Of a stretch of 64,000 nucleotides of DNA, positions 14,437 through 63,966 are shown one piece after another; within the stretch, counting starts at the first letter, position 1; every line of letters starts with the position of its first letter. Source of the stretch: Rhabditophanes sp. KR3021 (taxonomy: Eukaryota; Nematoda; Chromadorea; Rhabditida; Alloionematidae); assembly GCA_963281155.1 (NCBI GenBank), contig CAUJLY010000002.1:5084001-5148000 (forward strand). Reading direction: 5' to 3'. The position numbers were made by a program, and so were the translations under genes. Below the pieces are notes generated by a model, which searched no databases, had not been told where the DNA came from, and saw nothing but the letters and a program-made list of their open reading frames with translations.

Positions 14437-16479
14437 TGCGGGATTCAGCAGTTTCCCAGCTAAAATTATCTTAACATAAATACAAACGAGAATTATAACT
14501 TGCCATAAGGATCTTTATTTACGTAAGGCATTTTATTTTGCTTTCTTAAAATATTCAATTAAGTAGTAATAAAATCCGTGTCTAAGGTTTATGTAAAAAT
14601 AGTGACAAGATTGACTTTTATACCTCACTTATGTTGACATATTTTATCTATTCAAAGCTCATTTGTAATTTGCATCTACATTTGCCGAATAGATTTTATC
14701 AGTAAAGCCCAATTATCTTTGCATTTAAAGTTTGTAGGCAATGGTGTGATCTTGGAGATACCAACTGTCTTCTATAAGCTTAATTAAATTTCTTTGTTTA
14801 TTCTTTATTAATGCTAACATTAGTAGGACATTACTTTAGTGTAATTGATAAAAAAAGTATTTCCGCTTTTTTGTAAAGCCATAGGCCAATAATATAATTT
14901 AGTCAAACATTATACATTACAAATCATCTATCAAATTTTTTAATGATACTTATATAGATACAACATTTTTGTGCAATACATTATTTATTAAACCCATTAA
15001 ATAACATATTTTTAAATAGAATTTATAAATATTTACTCTCATCAGAATTAAAGATAGTGATTATATAAACTCCAAAAAATATTACATTGATTTATGCTTC
15101 GTAAGAGTACTAACTTCTTTATTCATGAAAACAATATTTGCCATAAATTTATTAATGAAAACTGAATGTTTGTGTAGACTTTTTTTATTATGAAGGGATA
15201 TAATGAATCAAAATGCCATAAATTTGTTCTGAAGAAACACATAGATATAAGTGCAGTTATCTACAAAACCAACAGTTTATGAACAAGGAGATAATGTCTC
15301 TTTAGTTGATTTAACAGTTTTACATTAAATCTTTTAGAATATTCTCAATTCACAACGTACATATAATGTTCGCAGAGTTAATGTCACCCTTTACTTCGGA
15401 TTTACCCTTATTTACGTATAAATGACTAACTGAAAAATACTAAAAATGGTTTAAAACTCCAAGTTGAGATTAGTCTGCATTTGCAATTCTATATGAATTC
15501 TGATTATTAGTTTTGGAATGAGATTTTCAAAATTTAACGATTTTTATTTTGAAGCAGTTTACAATCTTGAAAATATACTTTGCATTAATAACATTTATTT
15601 CAATAGTTTATTAATCATGAATAGCTAGTTATATTTGCAATAGTAAATGTATAAAGTAAGCTCTAATTACTAATACTTCCTGAACCAATCTAAATAAGCA
15701 TACATAGTGATCCAAATAATTTTACTCCGTAATAAATGAAAATGCTGCTGAATATCCTCAATAAGTATGTTAAGTAAATAATATTCGATACATTAATAAT
15801 ACGTTTTGGATCTTTTAAAATAATTATTGCTGCTCCTTTTATTTTAATCTAAGAATAAACTCCGATTATGACTTTTCGAATGCACACTGAATAGCTTTGT
15901 GCGAATAATTAAAATAAATTTTCTCATTTCAGAAATTAAGCAGTCGTAGTCACTTATTGTATAGTTTATTATTTTGTAGTTGCATTGCAGAAGAGATATT
16001 CAGTTTGATGGAATTAAATAAGCAAAGTGGCTAGAGTAATTGCAGCTAAATTTAAAAATAATGAAAGATTACAAATATAAAACTAATTATATTTTAAACC
16101 AGCATGATATGTAATAAGCATTGTCAAAATTGAAATGATTGGTAATGCCATTTAATTCGATAAATTTTAGTAATTATTTCCGCCAAAATAATATGTTTTC
16201 CTCAGGTACTCAACAGTTATTATTCGTGATTATAGAAATAGATATTATTCTAATGACATAATAATGAACCAACAGAATTAAGATCAATGAACAAATGACG
16301 TACATACACACACAAACCCAATTCGACACCATTTTTTTAACCCAACTCTCCTGTAATCATATCGAGGTTAAGAGAAAAAAATATATTTGACATATTTGAA
16401 ATCAAACTTCATAGGATCTTCTATTGTAGTTTTTTTCTAACGTTTTTGACAAAAGTCAATCACACTAAAGCGGCGGGGA
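14437..16479. other. Gene-poor AT-rich region
   Basis: About 2 kb upstream of the carboxypeptidase gene. Many stops in all frames, no repeat array or RNA gene seen. Confidence 0.4.
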
Positions 16480-16619
16480 TTAGATACAGCCTCCTTTCTT
16501 GAGCACGAAGATGCGTCTTGAATTCCTTTGTGGATTCATACGCTTGATGACTGCCAGGTAAGCTCTTTTGCTCTCCGATGGAGAGGACGCCTTCTGAGCC
16601 GTCTTTTTTAAAACAACCT
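16480..16619 (-). other. Candidate isolated exon in a GC-richer island
   Basis: A ~150-base block clearly richer in G/C than its surroundings. On the minus strand an acceptor-like TTTGTAG precedes an open frame with basic, Ser-rich content (includes SESKRAYLAVIKRMNP and RRIFVLKKGGCI) ending in TAA at 16482-16480. No start codon or partner exon was found, and I do not recognise the family. It could be the last exon of a gene, a fragment of one, or chance. The flank to 17076 is AT-rich and empty. Confidence 0.25.
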
Positions 16620-23761: not shown

Positions 23762-25658
23762 ATGTCTTCCGAAGATTTAAGAAGCAGCTCTATTAGTGCC
23801 AGACCTGAGTTTCATAGAATGAGTACTAGCAGCACTAATTTAGGTCCAAATGGTAAACAACCAACTAGTAAATTGTCTCTTAAACTTCTTTTTAGTCTCT
23901 GGAAACAAATACGTAAAAATTGTAACAGAAGTCCATTCATCCCGTGCTTCGGGTGGGACCATTCCAGGTTCATACGGTCAAAATGCAGCCTCCACCATTC
24001 GTGATTCTCGTGAACGTGAGAAGAAAGATATGGTTGATTTGAATGACAAATTGGCTAACTTCATTGAAAAAGTTCGTTTCTTGGAAGCTCAAAATAGAAA
24101 ATTGAACGCAGACTTAGATATGTTGAAGAGCAGGTCTGGGACTCACACTAAGAAAATCAAAATTATCTATGAGCATGAATTGTCTGAAGCCAAGATTTTA
24201 ATTGAAACCACAGGAGGTCAATCAAAAACTTTGGAAGCCAATTTGACCAAGATTACAAAAGAAGTGAGTGAGATGAAAAAAAAATATGAGGAAGCTTTTT
24301 CAGCTAGACAGGAATTGAGAGTTCAATTAGACGCACTGTTAGTTACATTAAGTAATTTGGAAGCTGAGATTGCTCTTTTAAAGAGAAGAATCGCATTACT
24401 CGAGGAAGAAGTAAATTATCTCAAGAAAGAAAACATCCGCTTGATGAGTGATCTTCAAAGAACTAAGATTGAATTAGATCAAGAAACCTTAAATAGAATT
24501 GACTATCAAAACCAATTGACTACCTTGGCTGAAGAGATAGATTTTATTAAAAAAAATCAAGAAGAAGAAATCCGTGATTTGCAAGCTTTGGCTTCTAGAG
24601 ACACTACTAGTGAAAATAGAGAATACTTCAAATCTGAACTGTCAAGTGCCATTCGCGACATTCGTAATGAATATGACCAACTTTACGCAAATAACAAGAA
24701 CGACTTTGACTCCTGGTACACACGTAAAGTACAAGAAATTCAAACTCAATCTGCGCGTCAAAATATTGAACAAAACCATCAAAAGGATGAATGCAAGAGA
24801 CTCAAGACAAATGTTACTGAATTGAGATCAAAATTGGCTGATTTAGGTAGGTACAGCACTTAAAAGTAGAAAACCTTAAGTATTGGTGATACCTACCCTT
24901 TTAATTACTATAAAATAATTTGTTTGTTTATTCATTCACTAATTATTATGACTTATTTAGAAGGAAGAAATGCCTTGTTGGAAAAACAAATTGAAGACTT
25001 GAACTACGAAATTGAGGATGAACAAAGAAGTTACGAGGGAGCTTTGAATGACAAGGATATGCAAATCAGAAAGGAAAGAGAAACTGCATCAGCTTACATG
25101 GTTGAATTGCAAATGCTCTTGGATACCAAGCAAACTCTTGACAACGAAATTGCCATTTACAGAAAGATGTTGGAAGGTGAAGGGGATGGTAAAGGATTGA
25201 GACAATTGGTGGAGCAAGTCGTCAGAACTACTGGAATTAACGAAGTTGCTGATACTGAGACTATGCGTGTTGTTAAGGGAGAAACCTCAGCTAGAAGTTC
25301 ATATTCTAGATCAGCTAAAGGAATCGTTAGTATTCAAGAGACAGCTGAAAACGGAGACTTTATCCAACTTGAAAACACCCATCGTGGTAAGGAAGAAAAT
25401 ATTGGAGAATGGAAGTTGAAGAGAAAGATTGATAATAAACAAGAAATTGTTTACACATTCCCCAAAGACTTTGTCCTCAAGCCCTTCAAGACCGTAAAAA
25501 TCTTTGCCAAAGGAAAGGGGCCTCACAATCCACCAGAAACTTTGGTATTCGACAAAGACGATACGTTCGGCGTTGGCAACAATGTCCAAACAATTCTATA
25601 TAATAAAGATGGAGAAGAAAGAGCAACTCATACTCAAAGATCAAGCAGCACAAACTAA
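23762..25658 (+). CDS. Cytoplasmic intermediate filament protein, protostome type with lamin tail
   Basis: Three exons, 23762-23852, 23896-24846 and 24961-25658, join in frame to 579 residues, as in C. elegans IFs. Ser-rich head (about 1-60), then the rod: coil 1A starts [13 protein letters not shown] and contains [22 protein letters not shown]; coil 1B is the long lamin-like version; coil 2 ends with the IF consensus [16 protein letters not shown]. The tail carries an Ig-fold lamin-tail domain (about 455-570), seen in [11 protein letters not shown] and [16 protein letters not shown] residues. Such proteins form epithelial and muscle attachment filaments in nematodes. Codon use is Lys/Glu-rich and A/T-ending. 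The head-rod junction at intron 23853-23895 keeps frame exactly. Confidence 0.95.
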
Positions 25659-32674: not shown

Positions 32675-33057
32675 ATGTATTTTCCAGCCAGCTACCACCC
32701 ATTACCCAAGTGGTTATTGTTGTTCTCTACACTCTCATTAATACACTGTGCTTTTTCTGTTGCTCAAGTAAGTTGATACTGATATTTTTAATTAATTAGT
32801 CCTTTTAGCACCGTTCATTTTTGAGACTCGCTAGTCAAGAATATACTTATTTATCTGGAGATATCTACATTCAATTGTTCGTATCGTTGTTATTGGCCTT
32901 GTTCAGTGCAACTTCCTTTTCTGGTGACTTCCAAAAGATCCGCTCCGACAGCGAAGAAGATAAAGAATCATGGGATTCATTGGGAAATGCTCCATCTTTC
33001 TACAGTTTCGAGCACAGAGGCAAAGCCTTAGCTCAATCTATTGCCCGAGACGATTAG
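32675..33057 (+). CDS. EMC5: ER membrane complex subunit 5 (EMC5/MMGT1)
   Basis: Two exons, 32675-32767 and 32809-33057, separated by a 41-nt intron: 113 residues. The conserved start of the second exon, AQHRSFLRL, and the C-terminal APSFYSFEHRGKAL match the EMC5 pattern. Two membrane helices lie at about 12-30 and 48-68. EMC5 is a core subunit of the ER membrane protein insertase. The final 88 bases also lie in the open frame of NDUFAF6. An acceptor-like CAATTAG ends five bases before the ATG. Confidence 0.9.
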
Positions 33058-34049
33058 TCTCCGGCAAAAGAGATGAGAAACAAGAAATAGATGAGAGTAT
33101 GCTAAAAGAACACATTGTAAAAGATAATAGTATGGAACAACCCGATAAAATAATTAAAAAGAAAGTTGTTGTTGATAATAGTGGTGATAATTTTAAATAT
33201 TGTATGGATCGAGTCAAGGAAGCCGATTATATCAATTATTTGGCTACTTTATTGATGCCAAGAGAGGCTATTCCACACGTTTTCGCCATCCTTGCTTTGA
33301 ATGTTGAATTGGCTACCTTAAGAAATACGATTGCTAGAAATACTGGCACCGCTGATATTAACAAGTTGGCTTTTTGGAAGGATACTATTGATAGTGTATT
33401 TGGAATCAAGAAATGCCCCATTCCGAGGCAACCAACTGCTCAAGCTTTGAAGCAATTTCTGAAGTCTGAAACTACGATTGAATATTTGCACGACATGATT
33501 ACTGCTAGACAAAAAACTCTTGGAGATCGGCCTTTCAAAACAATGGCTGATTTAGAAGATTATGGTGCTAAGACAAATGGAAGTGTTATCAAAATCATGT
33601 GCGAAGGCTTAAATGAGTATGATAGGAAACTATCCGAGAATTCCATCAATGCAGCTGATAGCATGGGCAAAGCAGTAACAATAGTAAATCACATTCGCAG
33701 TATTGTACCATTGCTTAAAAGAGGAATTGTCTTGTTACCACAAGATATTATGACTTTGAATGAGTATAGTGGCGATAAGCTGTATAATGGCAAAGAAATC
33801 GACAAGGCCTGTCTAGTTGTAAGGGAGTTGTCTCGAGTTGCGGAATTCCATCTTCGTGAAGCAAGACAAGTGAAAGATTTTGTACACCAAAAACAACGAC
33901 TAGCTTTCCTTGGAGCTTCTCTTGCCTGTGATTATCATCTTGAAGGCTTGAAGAAAAACAATTTCATGTTCAACTATGGCGAACTTCAGAAGAATGATCC
34001 TTTTGTGGCTATGAAGTTGGCTAAAATGCGACTTTTCCGATCTTATTAA
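32970..34049 (+). CDS. NDUFAF6: NDUFAF6, mitochondrial complex I assembly factor
   Basis: 359 residues in one exon from the first ATG, which follows an in-frame TAA. The squalene/phytoene-synthase-like domain spans about 75-355, with FKYCMDRVKEADYINYLATLLMP, VFAILALNVELATL, QFWKDTID-like and LPQDIMTL matching NDUFAF6. Catalytic Asp-rich motifs of true synthases are absent, as in the family. The N-terminal 34 residues contain seven Lys/Arg and no acidic residue, which fits a mitochondrial presequence. They are encoded by DNA that is also the EMC5 C-terminus, in a different frame. If the protein instead started at Met44 (33099) it would lack a presequence. Translation would need a separate or trans-spliced message; the site is not certain. 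Confidence 0.85.
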   Translation: MGFIGKCSIFLQFRAQRQSLSSIYCPRRLVSGKRDEKQEIDESMLKEHIVKDNSMEQPDKIIKKKVVVDNSGDNFKYCMDRVKEADYINYLATLLMPREAIPHVFAILALNVELATLRNTIARNTGTADINKLAFWKDTIDSVFGIKKCPIPRQPTAQALKQFLKSETTIEYLHDMITARQKTLGDRPFKTMADLEDYGAKTNGSVIKIMCEGLNEYDRKLSENSINAADSMGKAVTIVNHIRSIVPLLKRGIVLLPQDIMTLNEYSGDKLYNGKEIDKACLVVRELSRVAEFHLREARQVKDFVHQKQRLAFLGASLACDYHLEGLKKNNFMFNYGELQKNDPFVAMKLAKMRLFRSY

Positions 34050-50589: not shown

Positions 50590-53500
50590 ATGGCAAATAA
50601 AATAAAACCTACAGATTTCGTGGAACCAGAATGGCATTTGGCAGGTGATTAAATCTTTTATTACTCAAAATCACAAATATAGTAAATGCATAAAATAAAC
50701 AGAGATATTATTAATATTTTAGAATGATTTCATTTAAGTTAAACTGTTGCATCAGTTCTAATAGGCTACAACATCTTACTTAGAAACTTCACCAATATTT
50801 CTCTTTGTTACACCGTCGTTACCCCTTCTTTAATTTTCGTTTAATGACACCACGTTTGAGAGATGTTGCAAATTTGTAAGAATGTTTTATATACACTAAA
50901 ATTGATTTTAAATATACAAGTAAATAGCTTGAGCCAACATTAAAATTCCATAGTACAAAGTCATAACAAACTGTTTATAAGAGTCTTTAAATTTGATACT
51001 AAATACCAAGAGATATAAAAATTTAAAAACAAAACTAACGACAAAAAGGAAAATATGGTTTCAAACTTAATGTATATTGTTGTAGGTTCATCAAAAAAAC
51101 CAGGAGGAATTTTGGCAGGTACATTATGGGAAGCTAGCAGACAGGAAACAATAGTAAGACGGGTAAATGCCACTCCTCCATTGCCTTCACCAAGGACAGG
51201 CATTTTGGGAAATGCATTAAAACAAATACCAAAATCTGTTGATAGACCTAGAAGTGCTTCTGCTGAAGATTTGACACATGAGAAGGCTTTTGCGAATAGA
51301 GCAAAAAGACAATCAATTATCAAAAGTTCACCTCCTAGGCCTTTGACAACGTCCAGGAGATCTTCGTCTGTTTCACCAACAACACACATACCAGACCCTT
51401 CAAATTATAGGCAGGGAATATTGGGTGCGGAGTTAGAAAAAAGAAGACGAGTAGGCTCGATAAATTGGCATGGGAAAGAAACTAAATTTGATCCCGAAGT
51501 ATTTGCAAGTAAAAGACATGCTGAAAGTATCAAGAATCAAGATAAATTTGGGCATATGAAGCATGATGTCAAAGACGAAACCACAAAGTCATCAAGGTCA
51601 CCTTCGAGAAGTAGTATGATCGCAATGGATGGCAGTACTAAAGATCTCAAAAAACAAGGAAGTAGGCAAAGTTTGTTACGAGAAGATTCACGAATAACGG
51701 GTGGCATCAAGCCAAAAAACGCGTCTCTCAAATCAGTGAATATTGATATGGAAGATTTGTTGAGTGATGAAGATGAAATGACGGGACCAGCTAATTCAGA
51801 AATAACAATAGCTAGATCTGCCGCTATCAATTTGTCACTTCAAGTGTTGCAATTCGGAGAAAAAGAGAATTGGGCGGAAGTTGAGAGAATTATTACCCAT
51901 CATCCCAACCGCAAATTCGATCAAGTTGATGATAAAGGAAGATCCTTATTTTATTTCATAGCTCTAAATGGACCTGTCAAATTAATCGACAAAGCTTCAA
52001 CTCACTACCGCGATGGCCTTTTATTTTACACTTCAAATAAAGAAAATTTGGTGCATGCAGCTGCTCAGAAAAATGATTCTGCGATGATCAGGTTCTTATT
52101 ACTTCATAAAGTTTCAATCCATTTAACAACTGTCGACAAAGGATACAGACCAATTCATTATGCCGTCCAAAGAATTGATGCTAATGCCTTTGGTGTCATA
52201 GATGTTTTGCTCAAATTCGATTCAGATGCCTTAACTATTCCTGATATCCTTGGAAATTTGCCGATTCATTTAGCCATTAAAAGTGGTGGTAATATAACCA
52301 CTCTGTCTAGATTACTGACGACCAACCAAAAAGTACAAATGGAAAGTCTCGACGAGGAGGGCAATTCCGTGTTGCATTTATCTGCTGCCCGCAGTAGTGA
52401 TCTATTTAAATATTTATCTTCTCAAGAAATTATTCCTGATATTAATTTGCAAAATAAAAATGGAGAAACTGCTTTTCATTTTGCTGTTCGAGGAGGCGAC
52501 GAAAATATTTTGAAGTTTTTGTATAAGTTAAAAGCAAGCGCAAATATCTGCGATAATCAAGGTAATAATATTTATGATGACTGTTATATTTTTTATAGAT
52601 AAAAGTGTTTTGCATGTTGCTGCTGAGCTCGGACATACTGCAATCGTTGAAAAATTAATCGACAAATTTGATTCTTCATTGACAGCTCGAACAAAGGATG
52701 GGCAAGTTCACGTTAAAATAAATTAATATTTTTAATTTTTAAGAGACACTTTACTACATATTGCCGCCTGTTCAGGCCATTCTTCAACTGCCTTGGCATT
52801 TTTGAAAAGAGGTGTTCCATTAAATATGCCAAATAAAAAAGGAGCCTTAGGATTACATACAGCTGCCGCAGCAGGTTTCAATGAAGTTGTTAAGGTTTTA
52901 TTAAACAAAGGAACAAACATTGACATTAAGACAAAAGAAAATTACACTGCCTTGCATATTGCTGTCCAAGCAAATAGACCTCAAGTTGTAGAAACATTAT
53001 TAGGGTATGGGGCAAATGTGCATTTGCATGGTGGTGTCTTAGGTGAAACTCCTTTGCATGTAGCTTGTAACTTCAATGATGAAAGTGCAACAGAAACTGC
53101 TTTGATGTTATTGAAAAGTGGCTGTCAACCAAATGTAAGAATGAATGACGGACAAACTTGTTTACATGTAGCAGCCAAACAAGGCATTGAGAAGATGATT
53201 AAATTGTTGTTGGATGAAGAAGCGGACCCTTTATTGTTATCAAATAATGGTGAAACTGTTCTTCATATTGCTTCGAAATATTGTAACTACAAAGCTTGTT
53301 CTATCATAATTGAACATGTTAGTAAATTACTAATAAATGAGAAAGATGCTCTCAAATCCTTTATTAATAGCTTAACGGTTGATGAAGGAAAAAGTGCCTT
53401 ACATTATGCTTCCGAAATAACATCTGATCAGCCTCATTTCCCTAGCGAAGATGCCGATATAATTAAATTATTAATTGATCATGGAGCAAACTCAGAATTG

Positions 53501-56500
53501 CAAACTACAATGGCCGGTGAAACATGCATGCATGGCGTGTGTAAAACAGGAAACAAATCAGTAATATTGGCGATAGTTGATTCATTAGATGTTGGCCAAA
53601 TTCAAATTATCCAGAACAAACAATCTAAAAAAGGGTGGGCGCCGTTGTTAGAAGCATGTGCTAGAGGAAATACTGATGTGGCTTTAATTTTGTTAGAACA
53701 TAATGCTAGAATTGATGTTTTTGATGAGTTTGTAAGTAAAAATGAGTTATAGTAGGATAATTGAGATTTCTTTCAGGGAAAAACAAGTTTGCACTTAGCT
53801 GCAGCAAATGGCCATTTGGAATTAGTTGAAAGCTTGTTAAAGAACAAAGCTTTTGTGAATTCCAAGTCAAAAGACGGAGCAACCCCTCTTCATTGCAGTG
53901 CAATGGCGGGTCACACACATGTTGTATACTCATTAATAACAAAATACGGAGCTGCAGGTAAAACACAATTAAACATATTTATAAAAATGGAAAATAGCCA
54001 ACTTTTTCAATATCATTATGGGTTTCAAAGAATTCTCCTAAGATGAGATCAGCTACTTCTTCATTCATTTCTTGAAACATTAGAAGTACTTCTTCGAATA
54101 AAGACTTCCCGGGGTTCAACATTGAACTAGACTCATTATTTCCATCTTAGATTGATCTATAATAACTATTACAATATTAGTTGCTTTTAATCTTACCTTC
54201 AATGACTTGACCATCATTCTGTGGCAAACCAGCTCTTTCAACTGCATTCCTATTACTTACTTCATCAGTAATTTGACTTAAAATGAAAGAATTATACCAT
54301 AAAATTAGTTTTAGACTTACTCTTATCCACAAGGTTTTTACTCCTCCTTAAGATCGGCTTTCCATCGTCAGAGCAACCAATTTTTTCTCCATATTGATAC
54401 TAGTACTTTCGCCAAATGCCTAAAAATACTGGCATCACCTCTTTTGCGTGGAGACTTAGTTATCTCTTGTTCTTCCATAATAGTTTAATAAACACCTAAT
54501 AAGAGGCGATCTTGAGCACTAAAATAAAGAAAATGAATTAGTAAATGTGTATTAGTGTTTCACTAACACATTAATTAAAAACATGGTATCTTTTTAACTT
54601 AATTTACAAATCGGTATCTCAGTGGAGGCAGTAACTTTGGACTTGCGGACTCCCTTACATAGTGCAGCTTTGTATGGCCAATTAGGAGCTACACAGACAT
54701 TATTAGCATGCCAAGCAAATCCAAATGCCAGAGACGACAAAGGTCAAACACCTCTTCATTTGGCTGCTGAGGAAAATCATGCACATGTTGTTAAATTGTT
54801 TTTAAAAATGAAGCAAAATAAACAGGTATTAACGGCTGTTGACTCGAATGGATTTACTTGTGCTCACATTGCTGCGATGAAGGGTAGTTTAGGGGTAGTT
54901 AAGGAATTGATGTTGATTGATAAAAATATGGTTTTAAATGCAAAAACAAAATCTCTGGATGCTACAACTCTGCATATGGCCTGTGGGGGAGGGCATAATG
55001 ATATTGTGAAGTTGTTGTTAGATAATGGAGCAAATCCCGAAGAAGAAAATAGCCATGGGATGACACCTTTGTCTGTTGGAGCAATGAGAGGGAAGGACTC
55101 AATTTTAGAAGTATTTGATAAAAGTTTGTGGAAAAAATGTAGCAAGAAAACGTAAGTAAATGATTAAAGAATATTTATTTTAAACACAAATATTTTAGTG
55201 GGTTAAATGCCTTACATGTGGCAGCATACTACGGAAATATAGAATTTGTGAATTCAATGTTGATGCATATTTCAGCAAATCAAAGATCTGAACCGCCACT
55301 ATATAATCATTTGGTCGTTAAAGAATTTGCGACCGAATACGGTTTTACTCCCCTACATTTAGCTTCTCAGAGTGGACATGAGGGGTTGGTTAGGATGTTA
55401 TTGAATCAAAATATTCAAGTTGATGCAGCTTCTACCACAATGAATATCACACCTTTACATTTAGCTTCACAACAAGGGCATGTTGCTGTTGTTGGAATGT
55501 TATTGTCTAGACTTACGACGCAACAGACAAATAAGGATTGGAGGTATGTAGTATAAAATTAAACTTTTATAAAAATTAAACATAGCCACTAGAATTAATG
55601 TTAAAAATTTTATCTAGGATAAGGTTAACAATAACAATTTGATGTAAAATAAGCTTAATAATAAAATTAGCAATAACAATTTTATCTCGAATAAGAATAG
55701 CGACTTCGCTGTTCATTTCCCATGAACTTCTTCGAATGAGGGCTTTTATGATAACAGGTGGTTTTCAGCTTTAAAATAATCAGAATGATATTAGTAAAGC
55801 TAATTTTATCTTAGCTATCACCCTGACATGTAAATATATTGCAACTAAAGTTCAGATTTCAAAGGTACAAATTCGTAAACCAGCCTTGATATAGAATCTC
55901 GGTGATACATTTCAACTTAAAGTTAATGAGACATTTTGACTAAAAATTGATAAACATTTAAATCCAAATATTTTCATTACTTTTAGGGGCCGGACTGCGT
56001 TACAACTTTCAGCGATGAGTGGCCATTATGAGATGGTTTCTCTCTTAATAGCTCAGGGAAGTAATATTAATGGGATGGACCAGCTCGGAATTACTGGTCT
56101 TCATAGTGCTGCTCGAGCAGGCTATTTAAATGTAGTTAAACTATTTATTGAATCTTCGGCAGATCCCTTAGCTGAAACAAAAGAGGGAAAAGTCCCGGTG
56201 TGCTTTGCGGCTGCTAACAACCATTTAGATGTCTTGAAATATTTGCTGAGGCAAAAACATGACACACATGCATTGATGGAAGATAAGAAATTTATTTTTG
56301 ATTTGATGGTTTGTGGAAAAAGTACAGACAACGAACCTTTGCAATTATTTATATTAGAATCGCCGGCTCCTATTGACACAGCTGTTAAATTGAGTTCGTT
56401 GTTTAGAGATATGAGTGAAAAGGAAAAAGAAAGAGCTAAAGATTTGTTGAATGTTTCTATCTTTGCTGAAGAGATGGCGGTCGAGTTGTTGAGTATAACG

Positions 56501-58064
56501 GCTGCTGAATATAATCCGGCAATTTTATTAAAAGCTAAAGATCACCGTGGCAGGCCATTATTAGATGTTTTGATTGAAAATGAACAAAAAGAAGTTGTTT
56601 CCTATGCGTCTGTTCAAAGATATTTAACTGAAATATGGACGGGTCGCGTGAACTGGAGTTTCGGAAAGACTTTCGCCTTTACGTTGATGGTTTTCCTATT
56701 TCCTCCAGCATGGTTTTATTTTTCACTGCCTCTAGAAACAAGAATAGGAAAAGCACCTATTATTAAATTTGTTTGCCATATCGTTTCCCATGTCTATTTT
56801 ACGATCTTACTAACCATTGTCGTATTAAACATAACTCACAAAATATACGAAACAACCTCAGTAATGCCAAATGTTGTTGAGTGGATTTTGTTGGTTTGGT
56901 TGTCTGGTAACTTGGTTTCAGAACTAAGCAACGTTGGAGGAAGTTCAGGACTAGGAATAGTTAAAGTTTTAATACTAATATTGTCGGCTGCAGCTATAGC
57001 AGTTCATATTTTGGCCTTCTTGTTACCCGCAGTTTATTATACGCATTTGGATAATGATGAGAAATTGCATTTCGCAAGGACATTGCTTTACTTAAAGAAT
57101 CAATTGTTTGCATTTGCCTTGTTACTGTCATTTGTTCAGTTCTTGGATTTTTTAACAGTACATCACCAATTTGGACCGTGTAAGTTTCTATATCAACACT
57201 CCCTAATTGATAATTTTTAACTTTAGGGTCGATCATTATTCGGGACTTAATTTACGATTTAACACGGTTTCTTGTAATTCTAATGTTGTTCATTGCCGGT
57301 TTTACCCTTCACGTAACTTCAATTTTCCAACCAGCTTACCAACCCATAGATGACGATTCCGCCGAGTTCATGAGATTGTCCTCACCACTTCAGACGTTGG
57401 AAATGCTATTCTTCTCGCTCTTTGGACTCGTCGAGCCTGATTCGATGCCCCCTCTACACTTAGTTCCTGACTTCGCAAAGATTATTCTGAAGTTATTGTT
57501 CGGAATTTACATGATGGTCACCTTGATTGTTTTGATTAATTTGTTGATTGCGATGATGTCTGATACTTACCAACGTATCCAGGCTCAATCTGATAAAGAA
57601 TGGAAATTCGGAAGAGCTATTCTGATTAGGAAAATGAATAAGAAGGCTGCTACTCCTAGTCCCATTAATATGCTGACGAAGTTTTATATTGTAATGAAAA
57701 TAGCTTACCGCCACAAAAGTAGGTTTGACCCTTTAATTGAACTTAGTTTTAACTATTTTAGTGCGAATTTGTACGCCAAAAGCTCAATTGGATTTACGTT
57801 ATGAAGAAAACATTGATGCATTTTCAATGACTGAGGGTGGCAGAACATCCCCAACTTTGAAAGATGAAAATGGTAAAAAATCGTACAATATAATAATTTT
57901 ATTAATATTTAATTTCAGGCCAAGCCGAAGAAGATGGCCGAAATGACAATTCGTATTCAATAGAAAGTGTCGTTGATTGGAAGAGAATAGTGCAAATTTA
58001 TTATCAAACAACAGTAAAAGGACGTGTCTTTGATGAAGCAAATAATATTCAGAATGCAGAATAA
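50590..58064 (+). CDS. trp-4: TRPN mechanosensory channel (NOMPC / TRP-4)
   Basis: Eleven exons: 50590-50644, 51086-52561, 52599-52701, 52744-53731, 53777-53957, 54623-55151, 55199-55543, 55987-57179, 57227-57718, 57762-57872, 57919-58064. They close in frame at 1872 residues (C. elegans TRP-4 is of similar size). A polar, Ser/Arg-rich N-terminal ~250 residues precedes a long run of about 28-29 ankyrin repeats, then linker helices (LQLFILESPAPIDTA), six membrane helices (S1-S6), a pore region and the conserved TRP-box stretch after LINLLIAMMSDTYQRIQAQSDKEWKFGRA. In NOMPC the ankyrin spring tethers the channel to microtubules and gates it by force. The intron 52702-52743 uses a GC donor (GCAAGT). 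The start exon MANKIKPTDFVEPEWHLAG is supported by phase only. Introns 5 (665 nt) and 7 (443 nt) are long. Confidence 0.93.
53968..54480 (-). pseudogene. Antisense coding-like relic in TRPN intron 5
   Basis: On the minus strand an ATG at 54478 after a TTATTTTAG site begins EEQEITKSPRKRGDASIF. Later stretches read DDGKPILRRSKNLVDKS, SNRNAVERAGLPQNDGQVIE and LFEEVLLMFQEMNEEVADLI, ending near 53981. GTAAG/TTAAG-like splice sites are present but the frames do not connect, so it is probably a dead nested gene; a real multi-exon gene is not excluded. Family unknown. Confidence 0.35.
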
Positions 58065-60944: not shown

Positions 60945-63900
60945 ATGAAGTCAACAAATATATCGCATCATCTTCTGTTTATATTTTTAATATTTCTTTC
61001 CCTAAAAAAGAATACTGTCGAAGGAGCAGTAAAGATGCTAAAGGAGCAGGATGTTATTCAGAGAATCCTTGAAACTTATGATTCACGCGTTAGGCCACGC
61101 GGGTCTAATAACAGTTGGCCAGGTAGGGTTTAGTTGAAAAAGAGTCAAAATACAAAGTTAAGCATGTTTTTTCAAAACCACTTAAATTATTTTTTGCAAA
61201 CCATAAGTATAACAATGGTTGCCAAAATGTCTATTCATTCAAAGAGCTTTAAAATATAAAGGAGAAAGGTATTGTATAAAATTGCACACCTAACTAAACT
61301 TTACTCAAATGACTCGATATTCGATACTACACAGCGCACTTAATTTGATTTTAATGATATTTAATATGCCAAAATTACTAGACTGACTAACTAACTTATG
61401 TTACATTAATAATAATAAATAAGCTTTACACGTATAAAATTCATAGGTTGCAAATTACTATCTACAATTCATCTGGAAGTGGTGAGGGAGCATATTGTAG
61501 CAACATATGTTAATGAATTAAACTAATTGCCGTTTCATTCAAAGTTTGAGAATATGAGAGCTCAAAATAATTAGACTGAATTAATATATTAATAAATTTA
61601 ACTTACAAAATATAAGAGTAGTTTAGATGGACTTATTACATATTATTTTCAGAAACTGGAGGGCCTGTGGAAGTGACAGTAAATATATATCTACGTAGTA
61701 TTTCAAAGATTGATGATGTCAACATGGAATATTCAACACAGTTCACGTTTAGAGAAGAATGGAAGGATCCTAGATTAGCCTATGGTAGATTCGCAGATGA
61801 GAACACCCAAGTTCCTAAATTCGTCGTTCTAGCAACAGACGTTGGAGATGATCGTCAGCAAATTTGGGGCGCAGATTCCTTTTTCCAGTAAGCGTTTTGA
61901 CTATTTTTTGAAGAGATTTGAATAATACTCTACATATAAGAGCTCTCGCATTTCTGAATGATTAAACAATTTTAATAATATGGAAGATTATGATATTGTT
62001 TGTCTTTCTACATTTTAATTTATTTTAAACTAATTTTTTTATTTTTTATGAATGAGAAAGAAGCTAGAAGACATCTTATTGACAAACCAAATATTCTGAT
62101 TAGAATTCATCCAGATGGACAAGTCTTATATAGTGTTCGACTTTCGCTTGTTCTATCTTGCCCTATGTCTTTAGAAGTAAGATAAGAATATTGTCTATTA
62201 AATCTTAAATTTTAGTACTACCCACTTGACCACCAAAAATGCTTAATTGATCTTGCCAGCTATGCCTATACCACAGAAGATATTAAATATGTAATTTTAA
62301 CCCGAAACACTCTTACAATTTAAAAATTATTTTGCTTTTAGCTTTGGAAAGAAACAGATCCCGTTCAACAGAAAGCCGGCCTTAAACAATCTTTACCAAG
62401 TTTCGATCTCCAGGAAATTAATACAGGATATTGCACCTCAAAGACTAACACGGTAAATGCCACTATTTATTTAATTTATATTAATTCGCTTTTAGGGTGA
62501 GAAAATTAATAATTGTGCATTAACAAATTGCATTATGCATGATAATAAGCTTAACTAACTTCTTTTAGGAGAGTATTCATGTTTACGTGTCGAATTGTTA
62601 ATCAGACGCGAATTCAGTTTCTACTTGTTGCAGGTTTGTCTTTAATTGTCCCTGTTTTGTCATAAATAATGCTTAAAATATTGTCAAAGCAACTATTTGT
62701 TCGAAAAAGGTTAAAGAGGTTAAAAATCGTTGTAACTTCTGTACTAATTGTTGCATTGTCCTTAACGCTTAATCTTTTGTATTTAGTTATATATCCCGTC
62801 GTTCATGTTGGTCGTAGTTTCTTGGGTAAGTTTCAATTTGGCTGATTAATTATTTTTAAAGATAAGTTTTTGGCTGGACAAGGACAGGTTGGTGTCTACG
62901 TTGATTCCTTTAACTTTTTTTAGTGTTCCTGCAAGAATCACGTAAATTTACAATTCATTAAGTTTGTTCACAACTATTTTTAGACTCGGTAAGTCTCTCA
63001 AATTAAAACAGTAATTAAGGTTTTCTTAGGGTAAGTGCCAGAAATGGATGAAATTGATAAGAATTTTAGGATCACGACATTTTTGGCTATGACTAGCAGC
63101 AGTGGGAGTAAGATATTTAAATCTTTTTGAAAAGATGTACAGCTTTACACATACTACACTAAACAAGATTAAAAATAATCATAAGAAAGTATACGTATTA
63201 TAGTAAAATATATATATTTTTGATGTTCACAACACTATGTTTAGTTCTAATATTTGAAAAGAGTGTGGTGTGTAACTGTACATTCATGGATGTAGTACAT
63301 ATTTTGTAAATATATTCAATAAGATTCCGTTCAAAACTGTTAAGTATCTTTTGATAAATGATTTACGCAATAGCTACCTACATCCATGAGCTTTAATAAA
63401 CTTACATCTTTTAATTCCATTTTAAGGTATAAACGCAAAACTGTAAGTTGCAATTTAAACGAAATAATCACATTAATTTAAACATTTCAGACCTCCAGTC
63501 AGTTACACAAAAGTTGGTTTTTACATGTGTTAATTTTATACATAAAAATTGTAGGCAATTGATGTTTGGATAGGTGTCTGCCTCGGTAAAATAAAAATCT
63601 TAGAACATTTTTTATAAATCATTTCAGCATTCATCTTCGGAGCTTTATTGGAATTCAGTTTAGGTATACTTTTCTTTGTTTAAATTTTAAACAACAAATC
63701 TATTTATAGTGAATTACAGCGCAAGGAAGGATATGGCATTCAATCAAAAAATGAGGTCCATGAAGCAAAATGGTCATTATTCGGAAAATGCGCGAGGATA
63801 CCAATTACTAACCCAAAACCCAAATAGACGATCATGGCTATGTTGTCAATTATTCTTTAGTAAATATAAAGAAAGATCAAAAAGAATTGATATTGTTTCA

Positions 63901-63966
63901 AGAATATTGTTTCCACTGGGTTATCTGGCATTCAACATTTTGTATTGGTTTATTTATCTGATATAA
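60945..63966 (+). CDS. GluCl: Glutamate-gated chloride channel subunit (GluCl), intron-dense
   Basis: Eighteen exons: 60945-61122, 61653-61887, 62050-62176, 62216-62290, 62342-62452, 62496, 62569-62633, 62787-62825, 62862-62887, 62924-62941, 62984-62988, 63030, 63070-63107, 63427-63442, 63491-63512, 63555-63585, 63628-63663, 63710-63966; 1281 nt, 426 residues. Signal peptide ~1-27. The Cys-loop is C175-C189 and the second pair C236/C247 (CTSKTNTGEYSC) marks GluCl/GlyR types. M1 ~256-279; M2 begins SVPARITLG, the PAR motif of anion-selective pores; M3 KAIDVWIGVCLAFIFGALLEF; M4 ends the protein. The M3 Gly (VWIG) is the residue linked to ivermectin sensitivity. Every junction is GT-AG except 61888-62049, which ends in AT. 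The family sequence continues unbroken across all joins, which is the main support for the very small exons. Confidence 0.9.
62496..62496 (+). other. One-nucleotide exon (G) in GluCl, first
   Basis: CTTTTAG, then a single G, then GTGAG. Including it makes the Gly243 codon of the conserved TNTGEYSC; skipping it shifts frame and meets a stop within 12 codons. Flanking introns are 43 and 72 nt. Confidence 0.65.
62984..62988 (+). other. Five-nucleotide exon (ACTCG) in GluCl M2
   Basis: CTATTTTTAG, then ACTCG, then GTAAGT. It supplies the end of Thr292, Leu293 and the first base of Gly294 of the pore-lining TLG motif. Flanking introns are 42 and 41 nt. Confidence 0.7.
63030..63030 (+). other. One-nucleotide exon (G) in GluCl, second
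   Basis: TTTTCTTAG, then a single G, then GTAAGT. It is the middle base of Gly294, whose first base is in exon 62984-62988 and third base at 63070. Flanking introns are 41 and 39 nt. Confidence 0.65.

What the first reader, a model, noticed from the sequence alone, without database searches (positions are those of the whole stretch)
62942..63107. A glycine codon assembled from three exons, one of them a single nucleotide
In the GluCl pore helix, ACTCG (62984-62988) and G (63030) are each flanked by strong acceptor and donor sites (TTTTTAG/GTAAGT and TTCTTAG/GTAAGT) at normal intron spacing (42, 41, 39 nt). Only with both does the frame give the invariant PAR-I-T-L-G-I-T-T of anionic Cys-loop channels. 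Gly294 would take one base from each of three exons. Single-nucleotide exons are extremely rare; how a spliceosome recognises one (recursive splicing from AG|G|GT?) is open.
Basis: partly seen in the sequence, partly recalled or inferred. Interest (0 to 1): 0.92.

Follow-up and report, generated by a model that had tools for sequence, protein, structure and literature searches.

The report
Two one-letter exons in avr-14
In a bacterium-eating roundworm, the gene for a glutamate-gated chloride channel seems to be readable only if two of its exons are a single DNA letter long, which would be rare and possibly a first for an animal nuclear gene.

Summary
Without it both alternative 3' modules (this one and one just past the window) hit stops, so it is the hub of the A/B splice. 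In the window, both strands, only these two places have acceptor-1 nt-donor of that strength (thresholds set post hoc); about 0.001 expected by chance in the two introns. A deposited Rhabditophanes KR3021 protein is reproduced letter for letter and reads the same bases around 62496, so a missing G there is unlikely. One-base exons are known in plants (APC11, VPS55) and Fusarium (CYP621A, also AGGGT in a Gly codon); my searches found none in an animal nuclear gene. Likely mechanism: two introns removed one after the other. Against: no RNA; intron 61888-62049 of the same gene has no AG acceptor, unexplained; no second record covers 63030.

The parts
60945..61122 (+). exon 1 of avr-14 (start codon, start of ligand-binding half)
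   Evidence: orthologue-guided spliced alignment
61653..61887 (+). exon 2
62050..62176 (+). exon 3; its upstream intron 61888-62049 ends ..TTTAT|G, no AG acceptor; start placed by protein homology, the AG-only aligner used a GC-donor 7-nt exon instead
62216..62290 (+). exon 4
62342..62452 (+). exon 5, last long exon shared by both alternative 3' modules (ends TNT, phase 0)
62453..62495 (+). 43-nt intron gtaaat...cttttag before the first one-base exon
   Evidence: retained in the deposited KR3021 protein model
62496..62496 (+). ONE-BASE EXON 1: G, first base of Gly243 codon; shared hub of both 3' modules
62497..62568 (+). 72-nt intron gtgaga...cttttag (to module 1); the same donor serves the acceptor at 64168 of module 2 beyond the window
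62569..62633 (+). first exon of module 1 (phase 1: GA GAG TAT)
62787..62825 (+). 39-nt exon, M1
62862..62887 (+). 26-nt exon (ISFWLDKD)
62924..62941 (+). 18-nt exon (VPARIT, start of M2)
62984..62988 (+). 5-nt exon ACTCG
62989..63029 (+). 41-nt intron gtaagt...ttcttag
63030..63030 (+). ONE-BASE EXON 2: G, middle base of Gly294 codon
63031..63069 (+). 39-nt intron gtaagt...attttag
63070..63107 (+). 38-nt exon, rest of M2
63427..63442 (+). 16-nt exon
63491..63512 (+). 22-nt exon
63555..63585 (+). 31-nt exon (M3)
63628..63663 (+). 36-nt exon (M3)
63710..63966 (+). last exon of module 1, M3-M4 loop, M4, stop TAA 63964-63966

Best explanation
The gene is the avr-14 glutamate-gated chloride channel gene of a Rhabditophanes worm. 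It carries two constitutive exons of one nucleotide, G62496 and G63030, each lying between two canonical introns, plus a 5-nt exon. Shown from sequence: the frame, the conserved residues and the splice signals. Inferred: the spliceosome removes the two introns around each G one after the other by intron definition, because one base cannot hold both splice complexes at once. If the upstream intron goes first, the join re-creates a donor (CGG|gtaagt; CGG|gtgaga); if the downstream one goes first, the acceptor ..ttag|G gains a normal exon. I favour the upstream intron first at 63030 (better-scoring acceptor), with low confidence. G62496 must be joined before either alternative 3' module (A-type here, B-type just downstream), so it is a shared hub; its loss, or loss of G63030 alone, gives premature stops. 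Origin (inferred): a second intron arose one base away from an older phase-1 intron at each place.
For: Spliced alignment with orthologues P0022 and P0023 picked both one-base exons and the 5-nt exon unprompted. Barring G63030 cost 13.8 for 4 of 5 references (the fifth, P0030, has its own insert there and did not use it); barring G62496 cost 25.5 for 5 of 5. With module-1 acceptors barred, 5 of 5 references reached module 2 through G62496; barring it cost 48-55. Without G62496 both modules hit stops. PAR-x-x-LG or AAR-x-x-LG is found in 117 of the 120 homologues listed, TNTG in 114 of 120. Only these two AG-1nt-GT places of this strength in the window, both strands; 0.0012 expected in the two intron pairs. 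The deposited KR3021 model P0161 is reproduced exactly by window exons that use donor 62497 and acceptor 62569 and retain 62453-62495, so that record has no extra base at those borders. 22 paralogue models have no exon under 8 nt among 49 internal core exons.
Against: No RNA evidence. The same gene has a third oddity, intron 61888-62049 without an AG acceptor, which weakens the claim that this copy is spliced normally. The donor after G62496 is only at the 36th percentile and the acceptor 63069 at the 34th. The fixed pattern TTTYAGNGTRAGT is not enriched genome-wide, 38 places against 77 for the backward control; neither of the two sites matches that pattern exactly, so it is a weak test. One more site of equal strength lies in the neighbouring locus L063, not examined. 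For G63030 I have no second record of the bases. In-frame alternatives exist at 63030.
Confidence: 0.82

Rival explanations
1. Assembly error: one G is missing at an exon border at each place and a single ordinary intron keeps frame.
For: Each place needs exactly one G next to an existing G, the kind of base an assembler can drop. My aligner allows no frameshifts, so the paralogue models say little about the error rate.
Against: The deposited KR3021 protein implies the same bases at the 62452 and 62569 borders, and a review lists KR3021 with 47.0 and 537,195 (read as Mb and N50, header not seen), unlike this assembly of 44.8 Mb in 6 contigs. It leaves the two strong AG-G-GT sites to chance. 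Not excluded for 63030.
Confidence: 0.06
2. Donor slipped by one base: the intron starts at TA (GG|TAAGT) and the G comes from the donor itself; the inner AG-G-GT is not used. The cDNA would be identical.
For: At both places the first intron base is G, so the mRNA sequence cannot tell.
Against: Needs a TA-AG intron twice in one gene and leaves both inner sites unexplained.
Confidence: 0.03
3. The real product differs: both microexons skipped (PARIT-ITT) or the 9-nt exon 62984-62992 used (TLGKITT).
For: Both keep the frame.
Against: PAR/AAR-x-x-LG is found in 117 of 120 homologues; ACTCG+G encode exactly the missing residues; barring the 63030 acceptor, which led to the 9-nt exon, cost 13.8 for 4 of 5 references, and barring the 5-nt exon cost 17.8-19.9 for 5 of 5. 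It says nothing about 62496.
Confidence: 0.04
4. A decaying copy: avr-14 is losing function in this species and the odd junctions are lesions.
For: Three irregular junctions in one gene, including an intron without AG; the deposited model is a 174-aa fragment.
Against: The 18-exon model has no internal stop and is 75% identical to the Strongyloides ratti match; the last exon of module 2 is open to a stop in one frame; the three irregularities sit at splice borders and two have ready-made one-base exons.
Confidence: 0.05

Closest known systems
CYP621A one-nucleotide exon of Fusarium (PMC12940212; parts 1-2 of 3 of the text read)
   Same: AGGGT; a G in the middle of a conserved glycine codon; phase-one boundary joined to a phase-two boundary; transcripts and gene models wrong there.
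   Different: Fungus; supported by 18 transcript reads and by 20 orthologues; one such exon is described per gene. Here an animal channel gene, two in one gene, no RNA.
APC11 one-nucleotide exon of Arabidopsis (PMC4674806; parts 1-2 of 3 read)
   Same: One base between AG and GT, needed for frame.
   Different: Base A in a 422-nt stretch; tested by substitution and deletion in protoplasts; plant.
VPS55 / APC11 1-nt microexons of land plants (PMC8831610; passages only)
   Same: One-base exon missing from annotations, conserved GTRAGT donor.
   Different: Plants; conserved across land plants, RNA-supported.
avr-14 A/B alternative splicing of nematodes (PMC3144221; passages only)
   Same: One gene spliced to two subunits; found here as one ligand-binding half with two 3' modules.
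   Different: Here the split passes through a one-base exon.
Recursive-splicing ratchet points of Drosophila (PMC8605326; passages only)
   Same: Acceptor next to donor, introns removed in steps.
   Different: Those are juxtaposed sites (0-nt), mostly in long introns; here one base stays and most flanking introns are 39-72 nt.

Membership tests
Single-nucleotide (1-nt) exon | one base flanked by a plausible acceptor and donor | tested here: met
   sites scored against 70 introns, 36th to 94th percentile for the four sites that touch the two bases
Single-nucleotide (1-nt) exon | the base is needed to keep frame across the junction | tested here: met
   at 63030 other in-frame joins exist but break the conserved motif
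Single-nucleotide (1-nt) exon | the base is present in mature RNA | not testable with these tools
   no RNA data held
Single-nucleotide (1-nt) exon | changing the base changes the cDNA | not testable with these tools
   needs a minigene
Single-nucleotide (1-nt) exon | conserved in related species | not testable with these tools
   no other nematode DNA was reached; scans of genome contigs and viral contigs with P0022 confirmed no relative
avr-14 orthologue | best matches are nematode avr-14 / GluCl alpha | tested here: met
   Pfam PF02931 and PF02932; no tree was built
avr-14 orthologue | shared ligand-binding half with two alternative 3' channel modules | tested here: met
   by sequence only
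Spliceosomal twin intron [D1,2] | inner intron splits the outer donor between its first and second base (abstract) | tested here: not met
   donors GTGAGA 62497 and GTAAGT 63031 are whole
Zero-base recursive ratchet point | AG directly joined to GT, no base kept | tested here: not met
   one G lies between and the frame needs it
Introner / repeated intron | similar copies elsewhere in the genome | tested here: not met
   only self matches, (the search skips simple repeats and very common words)

The most novel reading that the evidence does not exclude
Both one-base exons are real and the hub exon G62496 is a control point: its step-wise splicing gates production of both AVR-14 subunits, and failure sends the mRNA to decay. 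With the AG-less intron in the same gene, Rhabditophanes avr-14 would be the first animal nuclear gene known to depend on one-base exons, and a tractable animal case for asking how a spliceosome handles an exon too short for any exon definition.
Probability: 0.15. Interest if true: 0.85.

Novelty: new member of a known kind. Interest (0 to 1): 0.7.

Why it matters
If RNA confirms it, one-base exons exist in animal nuclear genes too, twice in a single gene and at the branch point of an alternative splice. It gives a bacterium-eating worm in which step-wise splicing of an exon with no room for exon definition can be tested directly, and it offers a reason why the deposited annotation of this well-studied channel gene is a 174-aa fragment.

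Tried and rejected
Considered and set aside: a missing G, a slipped donor, skipping of both microexons, a decaying gene (see rivals). Twin introns, ratchet points and introners were tested and not met. A canonical microexon that would explain the AG-less intron 61888-62049 was sought: 7 in-frame AG..GT candidates were listed (flanking introns of at least about 25-30 nt), all 7 with stops. A search for close relatives' DNA in genome contigs and viral contigs confirmed no relative. The idea that this genome is full of one-base exons was tested by fixed patterns: spacing 1 gave 38 places (control 77), spacing 2 gave 50 (60), spacing 4 gave 29 (79), spacing 0 gave 112 (72): no excess at spacing 1. 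Neither of the two avr-14 sites matches that pattern exactly (one has donor GTGAGA, the other acceptor TCTTAG), so it would miss others like them. L046, one of the 38 places, proved to lie in an exon; the other 37 were not examined one by one. In paralogue models the aligner placed a one-base exon in L025 and two-base exons in L010, L023, L026 and L027; all lie outside the core (before the first or after the last exon of 150 nt or more), and I treat them as noise; L019, L022, L024 and L030 were dropped as overlaps. The first run of that survey failed on a BLAST field. Four homologue models break at or just after the same TL|G (P0010, P0030, P0046, P0051); I tried to infer a shared microexon from the proteins and could not. 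Pairwise comparison of seven avr-14 introns printed no pair under its cut-off.

Full report
What the gene is. The spliced 18-exon model at 60945-63966 gives a 426-residue protein with no internal stop and both Pfam domains of neurotransmitter-gated channels. Its best matches among the 120 listed are nematode GluCl alpha / avr-14 proteins, Strongyloides ratti first at 75% identity over 94%; the best sequence match among solved structures is 3rhw, named avermectin-sensitive GluCl alpha. A second 3' half begins at what would be window position 64169 (L062 6169) and matches AVR-14B-type references, so the locus has the known avr-14 layout, one gene alternatively spliced to AVR-14A and AVR-14B (PMC3144221, passages). 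I call the module in the finding A-type because P0026, named alpha3A, has PARVTLG while P0059, named AVR-14B, has PARVSLG; this is an inference.

Which organism. A 174-aa deposited protein of Rhabditophanes sp. KR3021 (P0161) matches the model at 100% over 43% of a 242-aa query, and a chain of window exons reproduces all 174 residues. A review's table lists KR3021 as a bacteriovore with the values 537,195 and 47.0 and 5A (PMC9071541, one passage; I read these as N50, Mb and five autosomes, the header was not seen); the window's assembly is 44.8 Mb in 6 contigs. So the window is Rhabditophanes, apparently in another assembly. Whether the raw reads are independent I could not check.

The finding itself. 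Removing G63030 from the allowed sites lowered the score by 13.8 for 4 of 5 references; the fifth (P0030, Panagrellus) carries an insert at the same spot in its own model and never used it. Outcomes of the possible joins: both exons, PARITLGITT; neither, PARIT-ITT, in frame; 5-nt alone or 1-nt alone, early stop; 9-nt version, TLGKITT, in frame. PAR/AAR-x-x-LG is found in 117 of the 120 homologues listed; the three without are P0030 and P0046 (models that break there) and P0083. So conservation, not frame alone, selects the double join.

A second one-base exon. Exon 5 ends in phase 0 (TNT, 62452), but the next exon of module 1 (62569) and the first exon of module 2 (64169) both start in phase 1. 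Between them, 43 nt on, sits cttttag|G|gtgaga. With that G both modules read TNTGEYSCLR; without it both stop. TNTG is found in 114 of 120 homologues. Barring this exon cost 25.5 for 5 of 5 references for module 1 (the fallback was an acceptor at 62573 that loses Gly-Glu in frame) and 48-55 for 5 of 5 for module 2, where module-1 acceptors were barred by design. Two separate acceptors asking for the same base make a sequence slip at the acceptor side unlikely. On the donor side, the deposited protein reads TNT-VNATIYLIYINSLL-GRVF, that is, straight through the 43-nt intron, out at donor 62497 and in at 62569, so its DNA has no extra G at 62452/62453 or 62569. Its annotation found the second intron of the pair and missed the first.

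Chance. Against a matrix from 70 core introns of 22 paralogue models, AG-1nt-GT sites at least as good as the weaker of the two on each side occur twice in the window on both strands, and they are these two. Thresholds came from the sites themselves, so I used other spacings as background: 5.9e-6 per base and strand in 152,021 bases (window plus 23 of 63 loci held, leaving out overlapping loci and those fetched for the motif), 0.0012 expected in the 197 nt concerned. In that whole sample spacing 1 has 3 sites, the third in L063; a looser rule adds one on the minus strand of the window near 24147. Genome-wide a fixed pattern shows no excess at spacing 1, though it matches neither site exactly. 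The 22 paralogue models have no internal core exon under 8 nt among 49. So this looks like a property of this gene, not a habit of the genome.

How it probably works. One base cannot be bound from both sides at once, so the two introns must go in turn. Guo and Liu argue for intron definition combined with stepwise removal at Arabidopsis APC11 (PMC4674806, parts 1-2). In C. elegans, microexons are freed from the helper PRP-40 when a flanking intron is made unusually short (PMC8378409, summary and passages); here the flanking introns are 39-43 nt, apart from the 72 nt (module 1) or 1,672 nt (module 2, by coordinates) after G62496. Order of removal is a guess. Nelson and Syed suggest that such exons arise when a base is lost near a border and a cryptic AGGGT restores the frame (PMC12940212, part 2); an intron gained one base from an old phase-1 intron would do as well. 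C. remanei P0054 joins TNT straight to GVTTLL, which fits one common phase at both places in that species but does not prove it. No copies of the introns were found elsewhere in the genome.

What speaks against. There is no RNA. Intron 61888-62049 ends in TTTAT|G although the join there gives QNEKE; none of 7 in-frame canonical microexon solutions is open, and the deposited model simply starts at the ATG of that place, so the bases agree in both records. Either a non-AG acceptor is used or this copy does not make the full protein. For 63030 there is no second record, because the deposited model ends before it. The donor after G62496 and the acceptor 63069 are in the lower half (36th and 34th percentile). 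cDNA alone cannot separate a one-base exon from a slipped donor.

Novelty. Searches for single-nucleotide, one-nucleotide, 1-nt, 1-bp and related exon terms listed plant APC11 and VPS55, Fusarium CYP621A, and a placozoan mitochondrial cox1 case (PMC5436844, listing only); I saw no animal nuclear gene among them. The library holds only open-licence papers and I read only the papers named here, so this is not proof of absence.

Changes made on checking: the coding end is 63966 (not 63967); the homologue count is 117 of 120 by a recount; a fourth broken homologue model (P0051) and a third site of equal strength (L063) were added; the statement that paralogues need no frameshift was withdrawn because the aligner allows none.

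Noticed in passing
61888-62049: Intron needed for QNEKE has donor gtaagc but ends TTTAT|G, with no AG; no canonical microexon explains it, and the deposited KR3021 model starts at the ATG here.
   Followed up: partly
62048-62923: The deposited Rhabditophanes KR3021 avr-14 protein (P0161, 174 aa) is a fragment that retains the 43-nt intron and runs into a stop within intron 62888-62923.
   Followed up: yes
L062 6169-7241 (about 5148169-5149241 of contig C2): Second alternative 3' half of avr-14 (AVR-14B type), with no intron inside PARVSLGVT.
   Followed up: yes
homologues P0010, P0046 (Pristionchus), P0030 (Panagrellus), P0051 (Haemonchus placei): Four of the 120 listed protein models break at or just after TL|G of M2, the place of the 5-nt and 1-nt exons; cause unknown.
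   Followed up: partly
60945-63966: avr-14 has 18 exons, 11 of them of 1-39 nt, while other ORFs of the window run to 1283 aa without interruption.
   Followed up: no
whole genome: TTTYAGGTRAGT (acceptor joined directly to donor) occurs 112 times against 72 in the backward control.
   Followed up: no
L063 minus strand, 4882: A third AG-1nt-GT site as strong as the two in avr-14; gene context not looked at.
   Followed up: no
16398-16602: U3 snoRNA on the + strand (Rfam RF00012, 85 bits).
   Followed up: no
51055-57220: Three ankyrin-repeat ORFs on the + strand (51055, 52793, 56015).
   Followed up: no
32970-34049: Squalene/phytoene synthase-like ORF (S. ratti match is named complex I assembly factor 6); P0121 is 100% identical over 78% of it.
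   Followed up: no
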